From: Verrucomicrobiia bacterium
Lineage (GTDB): Bacteria; Verrucomicrobiota; Verrucomicrobiia; Limisphaerales; Fontisphaeraceae
DNA: 64,000 bases
Assembly: GCA_026414565.1 (NCBI GenBank)
Contig: JAOAIT010000044.1
Location: 1-64,000 of the forward strand
Reading direction: 5' to 3'
The position numbers and the translations under genes are program-made. The notes beneath the pieces were generated by a model, which saw only the letters and a program-made list of their open reading frames with translations, made no database searches and was not told the DNA's origin. The first letter of the stretch is position 1; each line of letters opens with the position of its first letter. Below, piece by piece: positions 40,587-50,749 of the stretch.

Positions 40587-40868
40587 TTTGGTTTGCTTTG
40601 CTTTTTCCACCATTGGAAAGCCAGCAGTTTCCACAAATTAGACCGCCTTCCAAGCCAAAATTATTCAACGCCCGGGATGCCTCAATCAAGATCATGGGAA
40701 TGGGTTTGACCATGGGTGGACGGGAAGGGTGGCTGGTCTGAAAGGTAAATGGCGCGTCTTTACGGGCCAACAGGCCCCCATCGCGCCCCAAAACAGCCCC
40801 GCGCTGCGCTCAGGCATGACAAAAGGATTGACCGCACCCGGCGGTGGTGTCCAATAAGGTCACGCCTT

Positions 40869-42830
40869 ATGCGCCCCCTGTGGATAGCCCGGCAAAGCCT
40901 GGGATATGCGGTAGCCATTCTTTGGCTGGCCGGGTTGGCGGGAGCAGATGGCAAACTCTTCTCGCAGAATCCGCACTACCGCTCCCAGGTTGATGCTCTG
41001 TTGAAGGGGGAGCTGGCCATCAGCCGGTCGCCGGTATGCGCGACGCATGATTTAACGTGGTCGGAGGGCGGCGTGCATCAAGTGTGGGGTCTGGGCGTCC
41101 CGGTGTGGCGTCTGCCCTGGGAGTTGGCGGCGCGGGCGGCGGGGTTCCCGGCGTTTCCGGATGTGTGGGCTTTCGGCTTGTTTGCGGCAGTGGCGGCCTT
41201 TGGTTTGTTGTGCGCGCTGTGGGGCTGGCAGGAACCGGAGCAAGTGGAGGCCCCCGGCCAGTTCTGGGCTTTCGCCGTCGGCGTCAGCGGCGCGATGCTC
41301 ATATTGCTCATGTTTCCGCCGCTTTTCGGACTGCTGGCGACGCGGTTTGGCATCTACGAGGAGGCGGTGGCGTATGAGTATTTCTACGCGCTGGTTTTGC
41401 TGAGGGTGCTGGCGCGGCTGGCGCAACGGACGAGCAGCCGGTGGTGGTGGGTGTTGTGCCTGTTGGCGGGCCTGGGTGGTTTCATACGCCCGCCACTGAT
41501 CTTCTACGGCATGGCGGCGGTGGTGGTGGGCGCGGGGGTTTGGTGGTGGGGGCGCCCGTTTCGCGCACAAGAGATTGCAGCAGAGTCTGCGACGGCATCC
41601 GAGGCAAGTATGGCGGATGGGCCTGCGGCAACCAAGGGGAGGCCTTGCGCTAAACGGTGCGGCGGCTGGCGCGCGCTCGGGTTGGGGCTGGTGTTGTTTG
41701 GCCTCGGCGGGGCCCTGCTGTTTTACACGAACCTGGCCCGGTTTGGCAGCGGGTTTGAGTTTGGGCACCGGCTGAATTTGCAGAATCTCTATGGTTCGAT
41801 GTACGCCACGCGGTTTGATCATCCGTACCAACTGGAACCGGTGTGGTCCGCCAGCCGGGAGCTGCTGGGGCTGTTATTTTTCACCCGCGAGTTCAATGGC
41901 GGCGATTTTTACCAGCAGAACTTCTTTCCCGGCCAGTCGCCCACCTTGCGCTGGCGGGAGGTGTACCTGACGACGTATAACCCCTGGTACTGGCCCTGGC
42001 TGGCGGGGGGAGGGGTGGCGACGGCGTGCGCAGGGGCGGTGTGGTGGCGGCGGCACCGGCGGGGCGCCGATGTTCCGGCGCACGCGCGGCTTATCGTGGC
42101 GCTGGGCCTGTGGGGCGCGCTGGCCGGCGTCACATTGTTTGGCTTTTATCTGCGGAACAGCGTCATTTCTTCCCGCTACCTTTTGGATTTCATGCCGGCG
42201 TTTGGGGCGTTGATGGCGGCAGGCTGGCTGGGGTGGTGCGCGTGGGCGGGGACGGGGCGGGGGTCCAAAGTGCTGCTGCCACTGTCTCTGTTGGTGTTAA
42301 GCGGGTGGACGGTCTGGCAAGTCAAGGGCCTGCGCAGTGCCTACGGCCGGCCTCGCCTCTGGACATGGACTGAGGTGCAACGGCAGATGGAAAAGCAACA
42401 GGCCAAGGCCGCTCAACCGCGCCCGGCGCTGCCGTCATATTACGACGCGGCCACCCGGTTTGACGATTACTTGATACCCTATAACGGAGCGGGCTGGACA
42501 ACGGGGAGCGGCGCGGTGATGCCGTTGGTCATCTTGTTTGTGGAAAATCCGGAGTACTTGGAGCTGACCGTGCGGCCCGACCGGCAGGATTGGGAGAAAG
42601 AGCCGCCGGAGCACGTGCGCGCAAAGGTCGGGCTGGAATTTCTGGTGCGGGAAAGCGTGATTAAGAGCGGGGATGTCTGGGTGGTGCGGTTTCGCGGGCC
42701 GCAGCAGCAGCGTTATCAACAAGGGCTGCAGACGGCATTTGTAGTTTGTGTGCCGAATACACATCTGTCCGCACGCCATACATCATGGTGCCTGCTTAGA
42801 GCCGAATGGCGGGGGCAGAATAACAAATAG
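40869..42830 (+). CDS. Large polytopic membrane protein, possible GT-C glycosyltransferase
   Basis: This encodes 653 residues starting at ATG 40869. About 10-12 hydrophobic segments are followed by a soluble C-terminal domain (about 500-653). An N-terminal periplasmic loop has SQNPHYRSQVDALLKGELAISRSP and WSEGGVHQVWGLGVP. The layout resembles GT-C proteins of PMT/ArnT type, but I see no definite acidic DE/DD signature, so the assignment is tentative. It begins the accessory island and is the last GC-rich gene before the AT-rich array. Confidence 0.6.
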   Translation: MRPLWIARQSLGYAVAILWLAGLAGADGKLFSQNPHYRSQVDALLKGELAISRSPVCATHDLTWSEGGVHQVWGLGVPVWRLPWELAARAAGFPAFPDVWAFGLFAAVAAFGLLCALWGWQEPEQVEAPGQFWAFAVGVSGAMLILLMFPPLFGLLATRFGIYEEAVAYEYFYALVLLRVLARLAQRTSSRWWWVLCLLAGLGGFIRPPLIFYGMAAVVVGAGVWWWGRPFRAQEIAAESATASEASMADGPAATKGRPCAKRCGGWRALGLGLVLFGLGGALLFYTNLARFGSGFEFGHRLNLQNLYGSMYATRFDHPYQLEPVWSASRELLGLLFFTREFNGGDFYQQNFFPGQSPTLRWREVYLTTYNPWYWPWLAGGGVATACAGAVWWRRHRRGADVPAHARLIVALGLWGALAGVTLFGFYLRNSVISSRYLLDFMPAFGALMAAGWLGWCAWAGTGRGSKVLLPLSLLVLSGWTVWQVKGLRSAYGRPRLWTWTEVQRQMEKQQAKAAQPRPALPSYYDAATRFDDYLIPYNGAGWTTGSGAVMPLVILFVENPEYLELTVRPDRQDWEKEPPEHVRAKVGLEFLVRESVIKSGDVWVVRFRGPQQQRYQQGLQTAFVVCVPNTHLSARHTSWCLLRAEWRGQNNK

Positions 42831-43118
42831 AATTAGTGACACCCCGAATTTTTTTAAATGAGTAGAATACGTATGCGTAAGTAATCGCGGATTAACATGT
42901 TACATTGAAAAAATAATTTTATACAAAAGGTGTTGACAAGTATTTTTTTTGCTAACTTGATTGCTGTAATCCAGTTTAAGGTTCACCGTCTGCTGTCTGG
43001 TGGCTGGTGCAAGGTGTGCTGGAGGAGAACGGTTGAGACACGGACGCGTGAAGGAGAGGCCGGAAAGAGACGCCAGAGTCTTGGGAGTAGGGTGAAGGAG
43101 TGGCAAAAGGCGGGCGCA
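42831..43118. other. AT-rich intergenic region before the secreted-protein array
   Basis: These 288 bp contain long A/T runs, a TTGACA at 42933-42938 without a convincing -10, and the short palindrome TAACATGTTA at 42893-42902. The base composition shifts sharply from the gene before it. A promoter for the following array is plausible but not demonstrable by eye. No gene is supported here. Confidence 0.4.
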
Positions 43119-43600
43119 ATGATTCTTACGAAGATGTTCGCCCGATGGAAAAGGGTCGCCAGCGTGGTTGCGATGTTGGCGGCAGGGTTGGGTGATGTAT
43201 TGGGGGCGGCAAGTGAGCTGGATTGGCAGACGCATTTTTCCGTCACCTGGCAGATGACCGCTTCATTGGTTATCAGCAATCGAATGACCAATTTTAGCTA
43301 TTGCCACCCCTTTACGTTGCAACGGCGGGGAAGTCAATGGCGCATGAAAGTCGCCTGGGAAGCAATCAGTGGGCCACTTATTATGATATTGGTTGTGATG
43401 GAACAAATATTTATGCGGTGCACCATGATACCCTTTCGCCGGACGCTCCCAAAGATTGTAACTCAGCGCAGGTGCATCCAGGGATAATCTGCACGTTACC
43501 CGGTGGGCGAATTCAATGGTTTTCCTTCTGCCGGGTCGTGGGCGGTGAAAGGTCGGCATGTGGAAAACGGGCTGGAGAAAAAAATGACAGACAAAAATGC
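43119..43600 (+). pseudogene. Frameshifted, truncated paralog of the array's large secreted protein
   Basis: From ATG 43119 the first frame gives a signal peptide (MILTKMFARWKRVASVVAMLAAG) and LDWQTHFSVTWQMTASL...GSQWRMKV. The frame then changes near 43345-43385, and the next frame continues with NQWATYYDIGCDGTNIYAVHHD. The gene at 43636 has CTWRIETKV and EVQHDGTNIYEIRK in the same order and spacing. The match fades before 43600, so the copy is frameshifted and cut off at about 150 residues. It is relic copy 0 of the array. Confidence 0.7.
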
Positions 43601-43635
43601 CCAGGTCTGAAGGCAAGAAAACTATTGCGCACAGG

Positions 43636-44763
43636 ATGGCAAAGACCAGGCTGACCCATGGCAAAGCCGGTTTGGCACTAATTATCGCTGCAGCCGGTTT
43701 GGCTTGTCTGCAAGGTCAGACCTTTACTGTAACCGGAACGCTGGTGCAGCATAGTTATATTCCATCAACGGGCGATCCAGGTGGCAAACTTGTCGAAGTG
43801 CAAAATTATACATTTGTGATGCACCGGCACAAATGCACATGGCGAATAGAGACCAAAGTCAAGGATCAAAGCCCGGGTTTTGACCATATTATCGAATACG
43901 AGGTCCAACACGATGGTACTAATATATACGAAATTCGCAAGACCAACCCTGACTTAATACAACCAGAACGCCAGGCGAAAGAAGCTCGTGCCAAAAAAGT
44001 AAATTGCTTTGCTGAGGTGTATGCGTCGTTGGTTCCGCGGGGAAATGCTACGCGAGCCAATATTATATACCTGGCTTATGGGGCGACGTGTTACTTGAAT
44101 AGCAGCGGGCGAGGCCGCATTAAACCCTTTGGATTGCTGGATGACCGGCTGTTCACCAACGCGCACTACCAGGTGGGCGCTGAATGGGAGTTTAACACGG
44201 GTTATCCAGGACTTTTGAAGAGCCTGAAATGGTATTCTGATGGTACATATTATGTTCTTTCATCGAATAAACAACTTCAACAGCGCCGGCACCCGCCGCC
44301 CTATCATAACGGATTCTTGCAGGGAGAGTATGAAGTTATTAGAACAACCAATGTATCAGGGATGCACATGCCAATTGTTTTTGCTTTGAACATATACACA
44401 CCTGCTGTGAGTGGCAAAGGCAGCAACGAATTGTACATGGTGGTCAGATATTATGGACAGGCGCAATCCATCCATGTCGAGGCCCCTGATACTGCGGCCA
44501 ATATACTGAAATCTCCAGGGGATGTTTTGGTATATGACAAACGATTTTCCAAGATTAGCAGGCCAATAGTGTATCATGCGTCCACAAACTGGCCATTTGG
44601 AAATACACAGCTAATCCGGGAGCTGTATCAACTGCAAATGCAACTGGACGCGAAAAATGAGGCGCCTCCACGGCAAGCAAGAGTTATTGCTGCATTGTTG
44701 TTGGTATTATTATTATTTTGGCCACTGGTTTTTTGTTGGCGAAAGGCTGGAACAAGACATTAA
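43636..44763 (+). CDS. Array large protein A: secreted, tail-anchored, family not recognised
   Basis: This encodes 375 residues starting at ATG 43636 (43597 is an alternative). A signal peptide ends near LACLQGQ. A β-rich body has TFTVTGTLVQHSY, TWRIETKV, HDGTNIYEIRK, ANIIYLAYGATCY, GRIKPFGLLDD, PGLLKSLKWYSDG and PPPYHNGF. One C-terminal helix (about 345-366, VIAALLLVLLLFWPLVFCW) ends in RKAGTRH and would anchor it in the membrane facing outward. It is paralogous to the gene at 47493-48662. The body has two close Cys and several Asn-x-Thr/Ser sites. I recognise no known family. Confidence 0.8.
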   Translation: MAKTRLTHGKAGLALIIAAAGLACLQGQTFTVTGTLVQHSYIPSTGDPGGKLVEVQNYTFVMHRHKCTWRIETKVKDQSPGFDHIIEYEVQHDGTNIYEIRKTNPDLIQPERQAKEARAKKVNCFAEVYASLVPRGNATRANIIYLAYGATCYLNSSGRGRIKPFGLLDDRLFTNAHYQVGAEWEFNTGYPGLLKSLKWYSDGTYYVLSSNKQLQQRRHPPPYHNGFLQGEYEVIRTTNVSGMHMPIVFALNIYTPAVSGKGSNELYMVVRYYGQAQSIHVEAPDTAANILKSPGDVLVYDKRFSKISRPIVYHASTNWPFGNTQLIRELYQLQMQLDAKNEAPPRQARVIAALLLVLLLFWPLVFCWRKAGTRH

Positions 44764-44783
44764 CCCTGAAGTTAAATAAAAAG

Positions 44784-45170
44784 ATGAAAACAATGCCAAA
44801 TCAGACCGGGTTCAAAACCGCAAAGATACTTTTTATAACCGGACTATATATGGCAACTACAGCCGGGTATGCTTGTTTCCAGTTGCAGGGAGGAGCTAGC
44901 TGTACCACTGGAACAAGCCAGTTGGCCAGAGTTGAGAATGCCTGTGTTGCTGTCGAATACCTCCCGCGTGAATCTTCTCACGGTTCAGAACTCTATGCTG
45001 TAACTGGAAAAGAAAATTGCACTGTTATATCACTAAATGTGATAAAGACAGTAACGTGGTATCGCATCTTAGACGGTTATTGCAGCTTGGAGGTTGTAAA
45101 TCAGATAGAAATCCCAACCGGAGAAAGATGTGCACAAGGGTATCTGGATGGTGATGAATGTACAATGTAG
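44784..45170 (+). CDS. Array small protein 1: secreted Cys-rich protein
   Basis: This encodes 128 residues starting at ATG 44784, 20 bp after large protein A. A signal peptide ends near MATTAGYA, and the mature part has seven Cys (ACF, SCT, ACV, NCT, YCS, RCA, ECT). The spacing suggests a compact disulfide-bonded domain. It is the small partner of the pair; a similar-sized Cys-rich gene at 46931 stands in the equivalent place. Function is unknown. Confidence 0.75.
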   Translation: MKTMPNQTGFKTAKILFITGLYMATTAGYACFQLQGGASCTTGTSQLARVENACVAVEYLPRESSHGSELYAVTGKENCTVISLNVIKTVTWYRILDGYCSLEVVNQIEIPTGERCAQGYLDGDECTM

Positions 45171-45368
45171 ATCATTAGATGAATGCATCGTCTAAACCAC
45201 TCAAGCAGTATTTTGGCCCGCAAAAATAAGATTTATGTCCGGTAAGGCTTCGTCCCATAGGTCGGATTGCACGAATCCCCAGGGAACACCTGCGCATCGG
45301 CTTAACCTGCGCACGGCGTGGCTCCGCCGGGCCTTTTTCTGCTGCCTGCCAGGTAACTCGCATTGACC

Positions 45369-45845
45369 ATGAGAAGTATTAACATCAGAAGTGAGTCATT
45401 GTTTCATACCAGTGCTGCAACCATCCTGTGTCTCACCGCCGTGTGCAAGCTCATAAGCGTTACGGGGGAGGCCAGGGTCATGGCGCTGGCGGACCCGATA
45501 ATCCGTTTCGTCAGCCTGCGGCAGTTGCTGCTATGGACAGCACTTCTTGAACTGGGCGTTGCGTGGTACTTGTTTAATGGTAGAAACATTAGGGCAAGGA
45601 ATTATCTGCTGCTTTGGCTATGCGGATTGTTTATTGCCTATCGCGTTGGCTTATGGTTGATGCAATACAAAGGCTGTTCCTGTCTGGGCACGGTTACGCA
45701 GTGGCTGCCGGTTTCTGCGGGGACGGTGGACCTGGTAATGAAGCTTATTCTGGCCTATCTGGGCATTGGTTCGGCCGTCTTTATCTGGAAGTCGTTGGGC
45801 AAGGACGGATCGAAGCAAGTGGATGAATGCCAGCCTATTGCATAA
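45369..45845 (+). CDS. MauE/DoxX-like redox-associated membrane protein
   Basis: This encodes 158 residues with four membrane helices (about 15-33, 50-68, 80-98, 120-138). YKGCSCLGTVTQWLPVS carries a CxC motif between helices 3 and 4, as in MauE-type proteins (CxCFG), which are linked to maturation of disulfide-rich periplasmic proteins. It lies 198 bp downstream of small protein 1 and overlaps the possible N-terminus of the GT2 gene. Handling disulfides of the Cys-rich partners is inferred from context. The first frame codon is TTG 45363, but ATG 45369 is preferred. Confidence 0.72.
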   Translation: MRSINIRSESLFHTSAATILCLTAVCKLISVTGEARVMALADPIIRFVSLRQLLLWTALLELGVAWYLFNGRNIRARNYLLLWLCGLFIAYRVGLWLMQYKGCSCLGTVTQWLPVSAGTVDLVMKLILAYLGIGSAVFIWKSLGKDGSKQVDECQPIA

Positions 45846-45889
45846 ACTTTGTGGAAGGGCATACGCATAAACCGCCTGAGTGGGGCAAG

Positions 45890-46675
45890 GTGTGCTTGGA
45901 TAATGAGCCTGTTCCCCCATGCCTCGCAGTGGTCATTCCTGTGTACAACGAGGCACGGAACCTGGGTTTGGTGTTGGAGCGCGTCTTGGAGAAGCGGTTT
46001 GTAGCCGAAGTGGTGGTGGTGGACGATGGGTCCACGGATGGGAGCTGGGAGGTGATGCGCTCCTAGGAGGCGCGGGATTCCCGCATTCGCCTGGCGCGGC
46101 ACGAGCGCAACCGCGGGAAAGGGGCGGCGTTGGGGACGGGCCTGGGGCTGGCCCGTGCGCCGGTGGTGGTGGTGCAGGACGGTGATTTGGAATATGACCC
46201 TACAGACCTGGGGCCGATGCTCGAGCTGATCCTATGCGGCAAAGCTGACGTGGTTTACGGGAGCCGGTACGCCGATGGGCGGCGGGGGGTAGGGCCTTTG
46301 TGGCATACCTTGGGCAACAAGGCGTTAACGCTCATTTCCAACCTGTGCACGGGTCAGTGGCTTACGGACGAGGCGACCTGTTATAAGATGTTCCGGCGGG
46401 ACTTGCTGGAGCGGCTGGAATTGCGGGAGCAAGGGTTTGGATTTTGCCCGGAATTTACGGCCAAGGTGAGCCGATTGGGGGTGCGGGTGATGGAGGTGCC
46501 GATATCGTATCACGGGCGAAGCCGGGCGGAGGGAAAGAAGATTCGGCTGCGGCATGGGCTGGAGGCGGTGTGGTGCCTGGTGAAGTACCGCCGGTGGCAG
46601 CCCACAGAGGGAACGGGGACTGAAGGGCGCACGTTTAAGGGGTGCCTGGAGCAATGTCCAAAAGCGCCGGATTAA
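45890..46675 (+). pseudogene. DPM1-like GT2 glycosyltransferase with an in-frame amber stop
   Basis: The frame from GTG 45890 (or ATG 45827) gives PCLAVVIPVYNEARNLG, VVVVDDGSTDGSWEVMRS and then TAG at 46064-46066. The same frame continues without a shift: EARDSRIRLARHERNRGKGAALGTGLGLARAPVVVVQDGDLEYDP, YGSRYADGRRGVGPLWHTLGNKALTLISN, DEATCYKMFRR and ISYHGRSRAEGKKI. These are GT2 dolichol/polyprenyl-phosphate mannosyl- or glucosyltransferase motifs with both catalytic Asp positions (DDGS, QDGDLEYDP). Without the stop the protein would be about 261 residues, close to normal. It is either a fresh nonsense mutant or a sequencing error. Confidence 0.82.
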
Positions 46676-46842
46676 TGGGTTGACAAGGAACAAAGTGCAG
46701 AGCCGAACGGGATTAAAGAAATGGAAAGTATCATGGAGACACGCAAAGAAAAAAATCCGACGCTGACGGGAGGAAAATCCAAAGTTATCGCAAATGACCA
46801 GATTTTAACAGGCTAATAAACCACTGAAAAGAATGGCTGACA

Positions 46843-46898
46843 CTGTTTTGGATGGCCGGCAATTACTGGAAACGGAGGACGGCAAACAAAGAACATAC
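46843..46898 (+). pseudogene. 3'-terminal stub of an array large protein
   Basis: These 56 bp match 48597-48652 at nearly every position (CTGTTTTGGATGGCCGGCAA and onward). There they encode the tail LFWMAGNYWKRKTANKEHT of large protein B; here one base change gives KRRTANKEHT. The stub is followed 32 bp later by small protein 2, the same order as in the intact pairs. It is what remains of another copy of the large gene. The rest of 46676-46930 shows no gene. Confidence 0.8.
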
Positions 46899-46930
46899 AT
46901 AAACCTAAAAGTAAAAGAAAGGAGTGCCTC

Positions 46931-47299
46931 ATGAACAGGAGAAAATCCATGGTGGTTGGGTTGGTAGCCGCGGTTGCGATCACCGCGGTTGCTGAGTTCT
47001 GCAACTATGATATTCGGACGCCTGATGAGACCAACTATGAGGTGTGTGTTGCCTTCGGCAACCCGCCTCCTCCGTGTGAAAAAGGAGTGCGTGTTCCGGG
47101 AGATGACGTGAGTGTTATCACATACGACGACATGGGTGTTCGTTGTGTTCCTTCAGGCGGGGCAAGAGCCAAATGTTTCTATCAAGTTGGGGAACCAGTT
47201 TACAACACTGTCCGTCAGAGATGCGAATGTGAACAACTGAGCATCCGGATGGAAAAAGATTGTACCCGAATGGTACTGGATTTCGAATATTGCGAATAG
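46931..47299 (+). CDS. Array small protein 2: secreted Cys-rich protein
   Basis: This encodes 122 residues, with a GGAG-like site in AAAGAAAGGAGTGCCTC upstream of ATG 46931. A signal peptide ends near ITAVAEFC, and the mature part has nine Cys (FC, VC, PC, RC, KC, RCEC, DC, YC) and a C-terminal LSIRMEKDCTRMVLDFEYCE. KCFYQVGEPVY...LDFEY is echoed in the remnant at 48674-48800. It is probably exported and disulfide-bonded. Function is unknown. Confidence 0.78.
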   Translation: MNRRKSMVVGLVAAVAITAVAEFCNYDIRTPDETNYEVCVAFGNPPPPCEKGVRVPGDDVSVITYDDMGVRCVPSGGARAKCFYQVGEPVYNTVRQRCECEQLSIRMEKDCTRMVLDFEYCE

Positions 47300-47371
47300 G
47301 AATTCGAAACACCCAAAGTGGATCCTGAACTCGACCTGGTTTTAAGGCCGGGCCGATTTGGTTTGTGGCTG

Positions 47372-47490
47372 CTGGTGCGCGGATGGGGGGCGTGGGGTGG
47401 CCGTTGCGGCATAACCTCGGCAATAAGGCGTCAATCCTCCTGTTCAACCTGCGCACGGGGCTGTGGCTGACGGAGGAGGTGACGTGCTGA
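47372..47490 (+). pseudogene. Degraded fragment of a second GT2 glycosyltransferase gene
   Basis: This region repeats part of the GT2 gene at 46265-46385. Nucleotide blocks such as CTCGGCAATAAGGCGT and AACCTGCGCACGGGGCTGTG align with CTTGGGCAACAAGGCGTTAA and AACCTGTGCACGGGTCAGTG. In one frame it reads HNLGNKASILLFNLRTGLWLTEEVTC before a stop at 47488-47490, against HTLGNKALTLISNLCTGQWLTDEATC in the intact part. It shows that the glycosyltransferase was duplicated with the array and then lost. Confidence 0.72.
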
Positions 47491-47492
47491 AT

Positions 47493-48662
47493 ATGAAACT
47501 GCGCAAACTGGTGGAAAAGCTGGACGATCGTATGGCAAGCAATGTGCTGACCGGCAAACCAACATTGAAGAACAAGTATGCTCTGACGAGATGGCTGTTG
47601 CTGCTAGTGATTTTAAGCGGGGTCGCCGTGCACTCCCAGCAATACTCGGTGAGCGGGACGACAATCATCGGGCAATATTACATGAACAGCCTAAGGCGTG
47701 CCTTTACCAATACCTTCATGGTTCAAGCAAGCAACGGTGTTTGGAAAATAACTGTGGATGTGAAGCCCGTGGGGAATCGCGATCTTTGCCGGAATGAGCG
47801 GTATTGGGATAAAACACAGATGATCACATTAAGCATATTTCACCGGGAAGAGAATGAAATCACGACCAACGTTGCGATCGCCACGATCTCGACAAACCCG
47901 ATTCCGGAATCCGATGTAAGTACGTGCAGCTTTATATGGCTGGCCTACTGTTCAGGAAACTATTTTAGCCACATGAGAAACTCAAACCGTTTGCATCCGG
48001 TATGGGCATTGGACGATATGCGCCTCCACAATGAGGGCTTTACGGTATTGGCTCGCAGCGCGATTAATGAAAAGCCCCCTGGCCTGCCCAAGTGCGTTAC
48101 CTATTTCAACGATGGGTGGGTAAGAACGGTGGGGCCCGACAGGGAAAGAAGTGTATTTAGATACAACCCGCCCTATGATCTTGGATTCAGCAACTTTATT
48201 TATTATTCAGATAAATGGGTTTCACGGCAGGGAGTTGAACTGCCCGGTGAATTCCATGCTGTCAGGTACGCGCCCAAATATAATGGGAGGGACACGAATG
48301 ACTTGTCGGTCATCACCGATGTTCGAGGTTGGAGCACGCAAATAGTGGTGTCGGACGACATACTGGTCACTCCTCCACAATATGAGGGAGTAATTGATGT
48401 TATTGATTATCGCCATCCTAATACGCGCCGGGTGGTTCAGTACCAGATAACAAATGGTTTATGGTTGGCACGTGATGATCCTGGGTTAAAGAAAATGGTG
48501 GAAAAGAGGACCCGTCCTTCTGCGGAACGAGCCGTTGTTTCCAGCCGGGGACGGATGCTTGCAGTGGCGATGTTAATTATTGTGCTTGTTATTCCGCTGT
48601 TTTGGATGGCCGGCAATTACTGGAAACGGAAGACGGCAAACAAAGAACATACAAAAACCTAA
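47493..48662 (+). CDS. Array large protein B: secreted, tail-anchored, paralog of protein A
   Basis: This encodes 389 residues from ATG 47493 (ATG 47532 is possible). A membrane signal (about 32-46, LLLLVILSGVAVHS) precedes QYSVSGTTIIGQYYM, GVWKITVDVK, CSFIWLAYCSGNYF, RLHPVWALDDMR, PGLPKCVTYFNDGWV, NPPYDLGF and HAVRYAPKYNG. These stretches follow protein A in the same order. The C-terminal helix (LAVAMLIIVLVIPLFWMAGNYW) and basic KRKTANKEHTKT tail would anchor it. Its 5' end abuts the GT2 fragment and its 3' end is followed by a small-protein remnant. Confidence 0.8.
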   Translation: MKLRKLVEKLDDRMASNVLTGKPTLKNKYALTRWLLLLVILSGVAVHSQQYSVSGTTIIGQYYMNSLRRAFTNTFMVQASNGVWKITVDVKPVGNRDLCRNERYWDKTQMITLSIFHREENEITTNVAIATISTNPIPESDVSTCSFIWLAYCSGNYFSHMRNSNRLHPVWALDDMRLHNEGFTVLARSAINEKPPGLPKCVTYFNDGWVRTVGPDRERSVFRYNPPYDLGFSNFIYYSDKWVSRQGVELPGEFHAVRYAPKYNGRDTNDLSVITDVRGWSTQIVVSDDILVTPPQYEGVIDVIDYRHPNTRRVVQYQITNGLWLARDDPGLKKMVEKRTRPSAERAVVSSRGRMLAVAMLIIVLVIPLFWMAGNYWKRKTANKEHTKT

Positions 48663-48673
48663 GAATCGGAGAA

Positions 48674-48800
48674 AAATGTCATTACAGACGAGGGATGCCA
48701 GTTTATGAAAAAGTCTCGGTTTTGAAGATTGCGAAAAAGCCCAGCCATTGGCAATATGCCACTGAGTTAGAATACGAAACTGCCGGCCCGGGCCTCATAA
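48674..48800 (+). pseudogene. Remnant of a third Cys-rich small protein
   Basis: In one frame this reads IGEKCHYRRGMPVYEKVSVLKIAKK...WQYATELEYE. Small protein 2 has AKCFYQVGEPVYNTV...LSIRMEK...LDFEYCE with the same order and near-equal spacing. The remnant lacks a start, a signal peptide and most Cys, and it begins directly behind large protein B. The remaining 48801-48976 shows no gene. Confidence 0.6.
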
Positions 48801-48976
48801 CTGCACTGGTTGCAAAGCCTAGGTAAGTCGTTGGGAAGTGGTGGGCGATCGAGGTGCTGATTTCTTGCAATAGATGTTTGAACAAACAAAGCTGAAATCT
48901 GATAAACTTGCGACAGTGCGATCCATCCGTTTCAGGCCTCTCGCGCAGGGAAGATTGTATTTGGGCGGTGGATTAA

Positions 48977-50749
48977 GTGCATGAATACCCACATAGTTTG
49001 TTGAGCCGCGGACAGCCCTGGCTGGTGGCGGCGGCGCTGCTGGGCCTGGCAATGGCAGGAGGCGGGGTGATGTTGGCTCGGGGTTTTGGGACGGCGCAGC
49101 ATGACGCGCGCTTTCATGTAAACTGGAGCGCGAATTTTTCCCGGCAATTATGGGAAGGCGAGGTGTATCCCCGCTGGTTGATGGATATGAACGGCGGGTT
49201 GGGGAGTCCGGCGTTTTATTTTTATCCCCCGGCACCCTATTACGCGACGAGCTTTTTGCGTCCGGTGCTTGGGGAGGAGGGGGCGAGCGGGCGGATGCTG
49301 GGGGCGGGGGCGGCGCTGGCGTTGTTTTTAAGCGGGTTGACAGCCTGGGGGTGGATGCAGCGGTGGGTGAAGGGGTGGGCGGCACTGGCGGGGGCTGGAG
49401 CCTACCTGTTTGCACCGTATCATCTGGCTGCCGATCTGTATGCACGGGGGGCGTATGCGGAGCTCTGGGCGTTCGCATGGTTGCCATTGGTGTTGAGCGG
49501 GGTGGATGGCCTGGCGGAAGAACGAGGGCCTGCGCGGGGTCTGCTCCGGCTGGCCTGCGGGTTTGGTTTGCTGGCGGCGACGCATCTGCCCGCGACGCTG
49601 CTGTTCTCACCGGTGCCGTTGGTTTATGCCTGGTGGCTGGGGGGACGGGAGGCGCGCTGGCGGTTGGCAGGATGGACAGTGGCCGGGATGGCGTGGGGTG
49701 CGGGGCTGGCGGCGGTATATGTGCTGCCGGCCATGACCCTGCAGGAGCTGGTGTCCATGAGTGCGCTCACCAACGCGCCAAATTTGCAGTATGACCGGAA
49801 TTTTCTGTTGACGGCGCTGCATCCGCAGGGGGAGGCGTTTCGGGCGGGGTTGTTTTGGCAGATCGTGGGGACGTTTGCGGTGGGGGCGTGGGGATTTATG
49901 ATGGCGGGGCCGAAGGAAGACGCAGGGCTGCGGCGGCGGGTGGCGTGGGGCGTGGTGGTTTTGTATGCGATGTTGTTCCTGATGTTGCCGCTGGGCGAGC
50001 CGGTGTGGAAGCATGTGCCGAAGTTGAAACTGGTGCAATTTCCCTGGCGGGCCACCGCGATTTTGACGCTGACGGCGTGCTGGCTGCTGGCGGTGGGTTT
50101 GCATTCATGGCAGCAGGGCGGGGGTTGGTGGAGGAGGGTAATGGGGGGTGTGTTGGCCGCGCTGCTGGCGGGGTGGGTGTGGCTGGATATTCAGGCCATC
50201 CGGCACTTCGCGCAGCACAATCAACCGCCCCCGGCAGACTGGCTGGGACGGCAGGAAGACGCCGCGGAGTACCTGCCGGCGGGGGTGAGGGTGCCGCTGG
50301 GCCTGGTCCTGGAGGAGTTGGAAGTTAACCGGCACCCGGAGCGTGTGAACCATTACACCGACGGCATCCTGCCGCTGCTGCCGCGGGCGGCGGTGGTGAA
50401 TGATCAGGCGCGGCTGGCAGCGCTGTTTGTGGAGGGGCGCGGCAGCGTGACGATCAAGGAGTGGCGGCCGCGGCGTGTGCAAGTGGTAGTGGAGGCGCCG
50501 GCCCCGGTCAAGCTGCAGCTCAGCCGGTTTTATTTCGAGGGTTGGCGGGCTTGGCGTGGCGTTTCTCCCGTGAAACTTTGGCCAGCGCCGCTGAGCGGTT
50601 TAATGCAGGTGGAGCTGCCCGCCGGCCGTCACACGCTGCGGGTGGAGTTGAAGTGGTCGCCGGTGGAATGGGCGGGGTGGGCGGTCACGATGGTTTCTGG
50701 ATTGGCAGTGGTGGTGGTTGGGTTACACTCGCGGCACGCACGGCCTTAA
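48977..50749 (+). CDS. PTPS-related (YfhO/GT-C-like) polytopic membrane protein
   Basis: This encodes 590 residues starting at GTG 48977. About 10-11 membrane helices and a C-terminal soluble β domain are present. The N-terminal AQHDARFHVNWSANFSRQLWEGEVYPRWLMDMNGGLGSPAFYFYPPAPYY is characteristic of the membrane 6-pyruvoyl-tetrahydropterin-synthase-related family, which is allied to GT-C glycosyltransferases. It probably works with polyprenyl-linked sugars. The GC-rich sequence marks the right end of the AT-rich array. It directly abuts the pseudopilin gene (stop 50749, start 50750). Confidence 0.78.
   Translation: MHEYPHSLLSRGQPWLVAAALLGLAMAGGGVMLARGFGTAQHDARFHVNWSANFSRQLWEGEVYPRWLMDMNGGLGSPAFYFYPPAPYYATSFLRPVLGEEGASGRMLGAGAALALFLSGLTAWGWMQRWVKGWAALAGAGAYLFAPYHLAADLYARGAYAELWAFAWLPLVLSGVDGLAEERGPARGLLRLACGFGLLAATHLPATLLFSPVPLVYAWWLGGREARWRLAGWTVAGMAWGAGLAAVYVLPAMTLQELVSMSALTNAPNLQYDRNFLLTALHPQGEAFRAGLFWQIVGTFAVGAWGFMMAGPKEDAGLRRRVAWGVVVLYAMLFLMLPLGEPVWKHVPKLKLVQFPWRATAILTLTACWLLAVGLHSWQQGGGWWRRVMGGVLAALLAGWVWLDIQAIRHFAQHNQPPPADWLGRQEDAAEYLPAGVRVPLGLVLEELEVNRHPERVNHYTDGILPLLPRAAVVNDQARLAALFVEGRGSVTIKEWRPRRVQVVVEAPAPVKLQLSRFYFEGWRAWRGVSPVKLWPAPLSGLMQVELPAGRHTLRVELKWSPVEWAGWAVTMVSGLAVVVVGLHSRHARP

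What the first reader, a model, noticed from the sequence alone, without database searches (positions are those of the whole stretch)
42831..48830. Duplicated, decaying array of a large secreted protein and a small Cys-rich protein
Seen: an AT-rich 6-kb block repeats an ordered pair. Large protein traces are at 43119 (frameshifted), 43636 (intact), 46843 (3' stub) and 47493 (intact). Small Cys-rich traces are at 44784 and 46931 (intact) and 48674 (remnant). The order large-then-small is kept in three of the copies, and remnants match paralogs at nucleotide or motif level. I recognise no described family for either protein. Inference: tandem duplication and loss of a module for outward-facing, tail-anchored and disulfide-rich surface proteins, as in antigen-like or competition-related variation.
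Basis: partly seen in the sequence, partly recalled or inferred. Interest (0 to 1): 0.82.

Follow-up and report, generated by a model that had tools for sequence, protein, structure and literature searches.

The report
Decaying array of MauE-linked Cys-rich modules
A patch of a Verrucomicrobiota chromosome carries intact and broken copies of an undescribed gene set - a membrane redox protein, a membrane-anchored partner protein and a fast-changing disulfide-rich exported protein - that recurs across the bacterial order, so it is a real and new module rather than random decay, although its purpose is unknown.

Summary
In detail: the AT-rich 42.8-48.8 kb block carries the large and small genes and remnants in the stated order. 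LARGE occurs in 90 of 293 genomes of the same order but only 2 of 384 sampled across the phylum. In loci fetched by LARGE, a Cys-rich signal-peptide ORF lies directly downstream of 35 of 59 tail-anchored LARGEs (control 25 of 398), and 43 of 59 have MauE nearby or fused. SMALLs form one hypervariable family with a Cys framework.

LARGE-1 and LARGE-2 are only 24% identical, so the array is mostly not tandem duplication; one block (GT2-L2-S2) was duplicated, with complementary loss. A same-genus genome keeps a single LARGE-SMALL-MauE-GT2 unit here. At a second locus an 8.46-kb module block is identical between the two species while its surroundings are about 77% identical.

Best reading: MauE assists disulfide formation in exported SMALL, with LARGE its inner-membrane-anchored partner; end use unknown. 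LARGE and SMALL match no Pfam or NCBIfam family. MauE beside peptides with at least 8 Cys was already predicted in Streptomyces.

The parts
42896..43109 (+). leader upstream of the broken LARGE-0, conserved with the leader of the G001 LARGE (66% identity), includes GTGTTGACAAG
43119..43534 (+). LARGE-0: frameshifted, truncated ortholog of the single LARGE of G001 at this locus
43524..43579 (+). second copy of part of the leader, just before LARGE-1: probable recombination point
43636..44763 (+). LARGE-1, intact: signal peptide, ectodomain, C-terminal TM (open frame from 43597)
44784..45170 (+). SMALL-1, intact exported Cys-rich protein
45363..45845 (+). MauE-like 4-TM protein with CxCxG (C105, C107, G109)
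   Evidence: ortholog in G001
45885..46675 (+). GT2 glycosyltransferase with an in-frame stop at 46064-46066
46843..46920 (+). 3' stub of a LARGE-2 copy
46931..47299 (+). SMALL-2, intact exported Cys-rich protein
47330..47496 (+). fragment of a second GT2 copy (73% to 46220-46388)
47493..48662 (+). LARGE-2, intact: signal peptide, ectodomain, C-terminal TM
48674..48735 (+). remnant of a SMALL-2 copy, two short collinear pieces (weak individually)
40749..42830 (+). flanking multi-TM protein (GT-C-like by appearance; no Pfam match), conserved in G001
48977..50749 (+). flanking multi-TM protein (weak PTPS_related/GT-C-like), conserved in G001

Best explanation
The block is a turning-over array of a three-gene export module of this bacterial order. 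SMALL is exported to the periplasm and folds into a disulfide-rich protein. The MauE-like membrane protein, through its CxC pair, supplies or channels the redox equivalents for SMALL's disulfides. LARGE, held in the inner membrane by its C-terminal TM with its ectodomain in the periplasm (and sometimes fused to MauE), is the cognate partner that holds, guides or neutralises SMALL as it matures. Neighbouring GT2/GT-C enzymes may add sugar. In this strain the original LARGE was broken and a distant pair (LARGE-1/SMALL-1) took its place, while a further [GT2-LARGE-2-SMALL-2] block was duplicated and partly deleted so that one copy kept SMALL-2 and the other LARGE-2. Shown: anatomy, family relations, co-occurrence, fusions, ortholog comparison. 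Inferred: redox step, LARGE-SMALL contact, glycosylation, final role.
For: 17 of 22 relatives of the 45363 protein match Pfam MauE, CxCxG invariant. Tail-anchored LARGE: Cys-rich signal ORF directly downstream in 35/59, MauE within 5 kb or fused in 43/59; tail-less LARGE 3/17 and 1/17; other long ORFs 25/398. MauE-LARGE fusions. SMALL is a real family with a Cys framework beyond shuffles. Similar LARGEs go with similar SMALLs (Mantel r 0.30, p 0.0002). Published view that MauE helps form disulfides in the methylamine dehydrogenase beta subunit, and mauE homologs beside predicted peptides with at least 8 Cys in Streptomyces (PMC7794033). Array history from comparison with G001.
Against: No experiment and no usable structure for LARGE (pLDDT 35). 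MauE's redox role is itself an inference in the literature. About a quarter of tail-anchored LARGEs have no detected MauE nearby and tail-less LARGEs usually lack both partners. The LARGE-SMALL correlation comes mainly from the closer pairs (rank correlation 0.06) and may reflect linkage alone.
Confidence: 0.45

Rival explanations
1. Competition pair: SMALL is a bacteriocin-like toxin and LARGE its membrane-anchored immunity protein, with MauE as disulfide helper; arrays, LARGEs without SMALL and module swaps reflect rivalry among close relatives.
For: Both proteins hypervariable and adjacent; arrays and runs of LARGE without SMALL, e.g. L149, L156; replaced pair in the window relative to G001; whole module identical between two species.
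Against: No match to any bacteriocin or immunity family in Pfam or NCBIfam; no toxic activity shown; LARGE is large for an immunity protein; the LARGEs without SMALL are mostly tail-less and also lack MauE.
Confidence: 0.22
2. Surface antigen or adhesin variation: LARGE and SMALL are displayed cell-surface proteins whose copies are shuffled.
For: Duplicated, decaying, fast-diverging copies; glycosyltransferases nearby.
Against: C-terminal TM with basic tail and fusion to the inner-membrane MauE argue for a periplasmic, inner-membrane position of LARGE; no known sorting signal or adhesin domain found.
Confidence: 0.13
3. A methylamine-dehydrogenase-like periplasmic enzyme with LARGE as large subunit and SMALL as cofactor-bearing small subunit.
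For: Same parts list as mauB-mauE-mauA (operon described in PMC2474590).
Against: LARGE matches no amine dehydrogenase model; SMALL has no nearly invariant residue other than Cys, so no conserved Trp pair; SMALL is hypervariable.
Confidence: 0.06

Closest known systems
mau operon (methylamine dehydrogenase: MauB large, MauA small Cys-rich, MauE, MauD)
   Same: Large exported protein, small Cys-rich exported protein and MauE encoded together; MauE thought to help make the small subunit's disulfides (PMC7794033; PMC2474590)
   Different: LARGE and SMALL match no mau family; no recurrent MauD-like neighbour seen; no conserved Trp in SMALL; hypervariable and in arrays
MauE-containing candidate RiPP clusters of Streptomyces (decRiPPter, PMC7794033)
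   Same: MauE homolog beside a predicted peptide with at least 8 Cys, outside methylamine metabolism
   Different: Different phylum; no tail-anchored LARGE reported there; here SMALL has a signal peptide and is about 130 aa long
NVEALA-type Cys-containing peptides of Bacteroidota (recalled from memory)
   Same: Small exported Cys-containing peptide family
   Different: None of 52 SMALLs matched it or any Pfam family repeatedly; no held paper uses the name

Membership tests
MauE family (PF07291) | Profile similarity to Pfam MauE | tested here: met
   17 of 22 relatives match, best E 1.6e-7; the window protein itself is below reporting level
MauE family (PF07291) | Four TM segments with a Cys-x-Cys pair | tested here: met
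   C105, C107, G109 invariant in 22 sequences; helices 3-40, 52-72, 76-104, 119-145 in a low-confidence model
MauE family (PF07291) | Required for disulfides of a partner protein | not testable with these tools
   needs a bench experiment
Methylamine dehydrogenase (MauB/MauA) | LARGE resembles MauB heavy-chain family | tested here: not met
   no such Pfam match for 34 LARGEs; no related PDB chain
Methylamine dehydrogenase (MauB/MauA) | Conserved Trp pair in the small subunit | tested here: not met
   only Cys columns nearly invariant among 52 SMALLs
LolA/LolA-like proteins | LARGE shares the LolA profile | tested here: not met
   hhalign probability near 0 against both families; a match by fold alone is not excluded
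Bacteriocin/immunity pair | Growth inhibition and cognate protection | not testable with these tools
   no family match; activity needs experiment

The most novel reading that the evidence does not exclude
An order-specific system in which a hypervariable, perhaps glycosylated, disulfide-rich exported protein and its cognate membrane-anchored partner are matured by a dedicated MauE, with whole modules swapped between species by recombination as weapons or recognition factors.
Probability: 0.25. Interest if true: 0.82.

Novelty: new variant of a known kind. Interest (0 to 1): 0.62.

Why it matters
It defines two undescribed protein families that recur with a MauE-type redox protein in a large, poorly studied bacterial order. 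MauE's role in making disulfides has rested mainly on one operon; natural fusions and dozens of naturally diverged pairs would make that role directly testable. The rapid divergence, pair replacement and a module block identical between two otherwise diverged species suggest a fast-evolving interaction system.

Tried and rejected
LolA/LolA-like fold for LARGE (suspected by eye from 'DGtnvY'): hhalign gave no support; no positive control of the method was run. Methylamine-dehydrogenase-like enzyme: no family match and no conserved Trp. Simple tandem duplication of all copies: rejected. Structure of LARGE from the two window proteins alone: unusable; loci from other genomes were not eligible for folding, and the single genome-contig scan returned only one locus. 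PDB sequence searches: chance-level hits. BLAST for SMALL relatives fails; only position plus profile works. dN/dS at the second locus could not be computed because the orthologs are identical. Paper searches for Cys-rich secreted proteins of Verrucomicrobiota, NVEALA or MauE with bacteriocins gave nothing relevant. Association with pilin-like, Wzy_C, LuxR or AraC neighbours was not significant.

Full report
Observation. The 42.8-48.8 kb block is AT-rich against its flanks. Two further parts lie in the block: a 4-TM protein at 45363-45845 and a GT2 glycosyltransferase (45885-46675, in-frame stop at 46064-46066) with a second GT2 fragment at 47330-47496.

The third component. The 45363 protein has relatives in 33 of 97 genomes searched. 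Of 22 aligned relatives, 17 match Pfam MauE, and C105, C107 and G109 are invariant. Several loci encode MauE and LARGE as one protein, including a second locus of this genome. In the fusions read by eye a signal-peptide-like segment with an AxA-type site follows the MauE part, so the LARGE ectodomain should face the periplasm; this is inference from sequence.

Spread. A LARGE profile hits 90 of 293 genomes of the order (52 of 118 genera) and 2 of 384 sampled across the phylum, one of them the window's own. The order is probably Limisphaerales (Verrucomicrobiia), inferred from one named relative record and the taxonomy listing. Two to four LARGEs on one contig are common.

Module test. In loci fetched by LARGE only, tail-anchored LARGEs (59, in 44 loci) have a Cys-rich signal-peptide ORF directly downstream in 35 cases and MauE within 5 kb or fused in 43. 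Tail-less LARGEs (17, in 12 loci) have them in 3 and 1. Other long ORFs have such a downstream ORF in 25 of 398. The criterion is conservative: both window pairs fail it. Some MauE loci without a recognisable LARGE (L080, L081, L088) still carry a protein of 332-377 aa with a C-terminal TM next to SMALL and/or MauE, so LARGE may diverge beyond detection.

SMALL family. 52 SMALLs align on eight nearly invariant Cys columns. An aligner stacks Cys in any case, so this was tested: 8 columns at least 80% Cys against 5-6 in shuffles; last Cys within three residues of the C-terminus in 79% against 34%; adjacent CC 0.06 per protein against 0.95; and a profile from one set of loci scores 13 of 22 held-out members above the 95th percentile of their shuffles, 9 above all 440. 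No Pfam or NCBIfam family. Similar LARGEs go with similar SMALLs (Mantel r 0.30, p 0.0002), driven mainly by the closer pairs (rank correlation 0.06).

History of the array. The single-contig same-genus genome G001 has one unit at the same place: membrane protein, LARGE, SMALL, MauE, GT2, flank. In the window the flanks, MauE and GT2 are about 71-81% identical in DNA to it, the ortholog of its LARGE is broken, and LARGE-1/SMALL-1 in its place have no DNA match. Part of the leader is repeated just before LARGE-1 (43524-43579), a likely recombination point. Beyond GT2 lie two partial copies of [GT2-LARGE-2-SMALL-2]: one kept SMALL-2, the other kept LARGE-2. The stub (97%) and the GT2 fragment (73-77%) differ in divergence, so more than one event, or gene conversion, is needed; this is unexplained. 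LARGE-1 and LARGE-2 are distant paralogs.

Second locus. At G000:C52 36711-45166 a block of 8.46 kb, holding a pilin-like gene, the MauE-LARGE fusion, SMALL, a multi-TM gene, a GT87 and a GT2 gene, is identical to G001 except for one substitution and one poly-A length difference. Collinear sequence on the rest of the 77-kb contig is about 75-82% identical, and no other exact run of 100 bases was found in the compared parts of C52 and C44. Either a very recent exchange between species carried the module with its glycosyltransferases, or this contig of a fragmented assembly is chimeric. The data here do not decide.

Mechanism. MauE has been speculated to help form the disulfides of the methylamine dehydrogenase beta subunit, and mauE homologs beside predicted precursors with at least eight Cys were reported as candidate RiPP clusters in Streptomyces (PMC7794033). 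By that analogy MauE here would oxidise SMALL, and LARGE, anchored beside it, would be its cognate partner. Fusions, adjacency and co-inheritance support this; contact, redox function and purpose are not shown. Glycosyltransferase genes (GT2, GtrA, GT87, PMT-like) recur near the modules; their enrichment near against far (30 against 1, p 0.015) is biased because the query set was drawn from near genes.

Limits. ORFs were called by a simple script; loci are high-scoring hits, not a random sample; there is no usable model of LARGE; the LolA idea got no support; nothing about function has been shown by experiment.

Noticed in passing
L026 2212-10668 (G000:C52 36711-45166): 8.46-kb block with a complete module is identical between two species of the genus (one substitution, one poly-A length change) amid about 77% identical collinear sequence: very recent exchange or chimeric contig.
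   Followed up: partly
window 46064-46066: GT2 gene, otherwise well conserved with G001, carries an in-frame stop; recent pseudogene or sequencing error.
   Followed up: no
L149 6829-11835 and L156 6412-11012: Runs of three to four tail-less LARGE genes without SMALL or MauE: a separate soluble branch of the family with unknown context.
   Followed up: no
L129 2500-5568 and similar loci: Genes with a Wzy_C (O-antigen ligase) domain lie near about a dozen modules; enrichment not significant.
   Followed up: partly
window 46843-46908 against 47359-47486: Two parts of what looks like one duplicated block differ in divergence (97% against 77%), which a single duplication does not explain.
   Followed up: no
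L088 7238-8371, L080 3026-4024, L081 13319-14446: Proteins of 332-377 aa with a C-terminal TM take the place of LARGE beside SMALL/MauE but are not recognised by the LARGE profile: very diverged LARGEs or an analogous family.
   Followed up: partly
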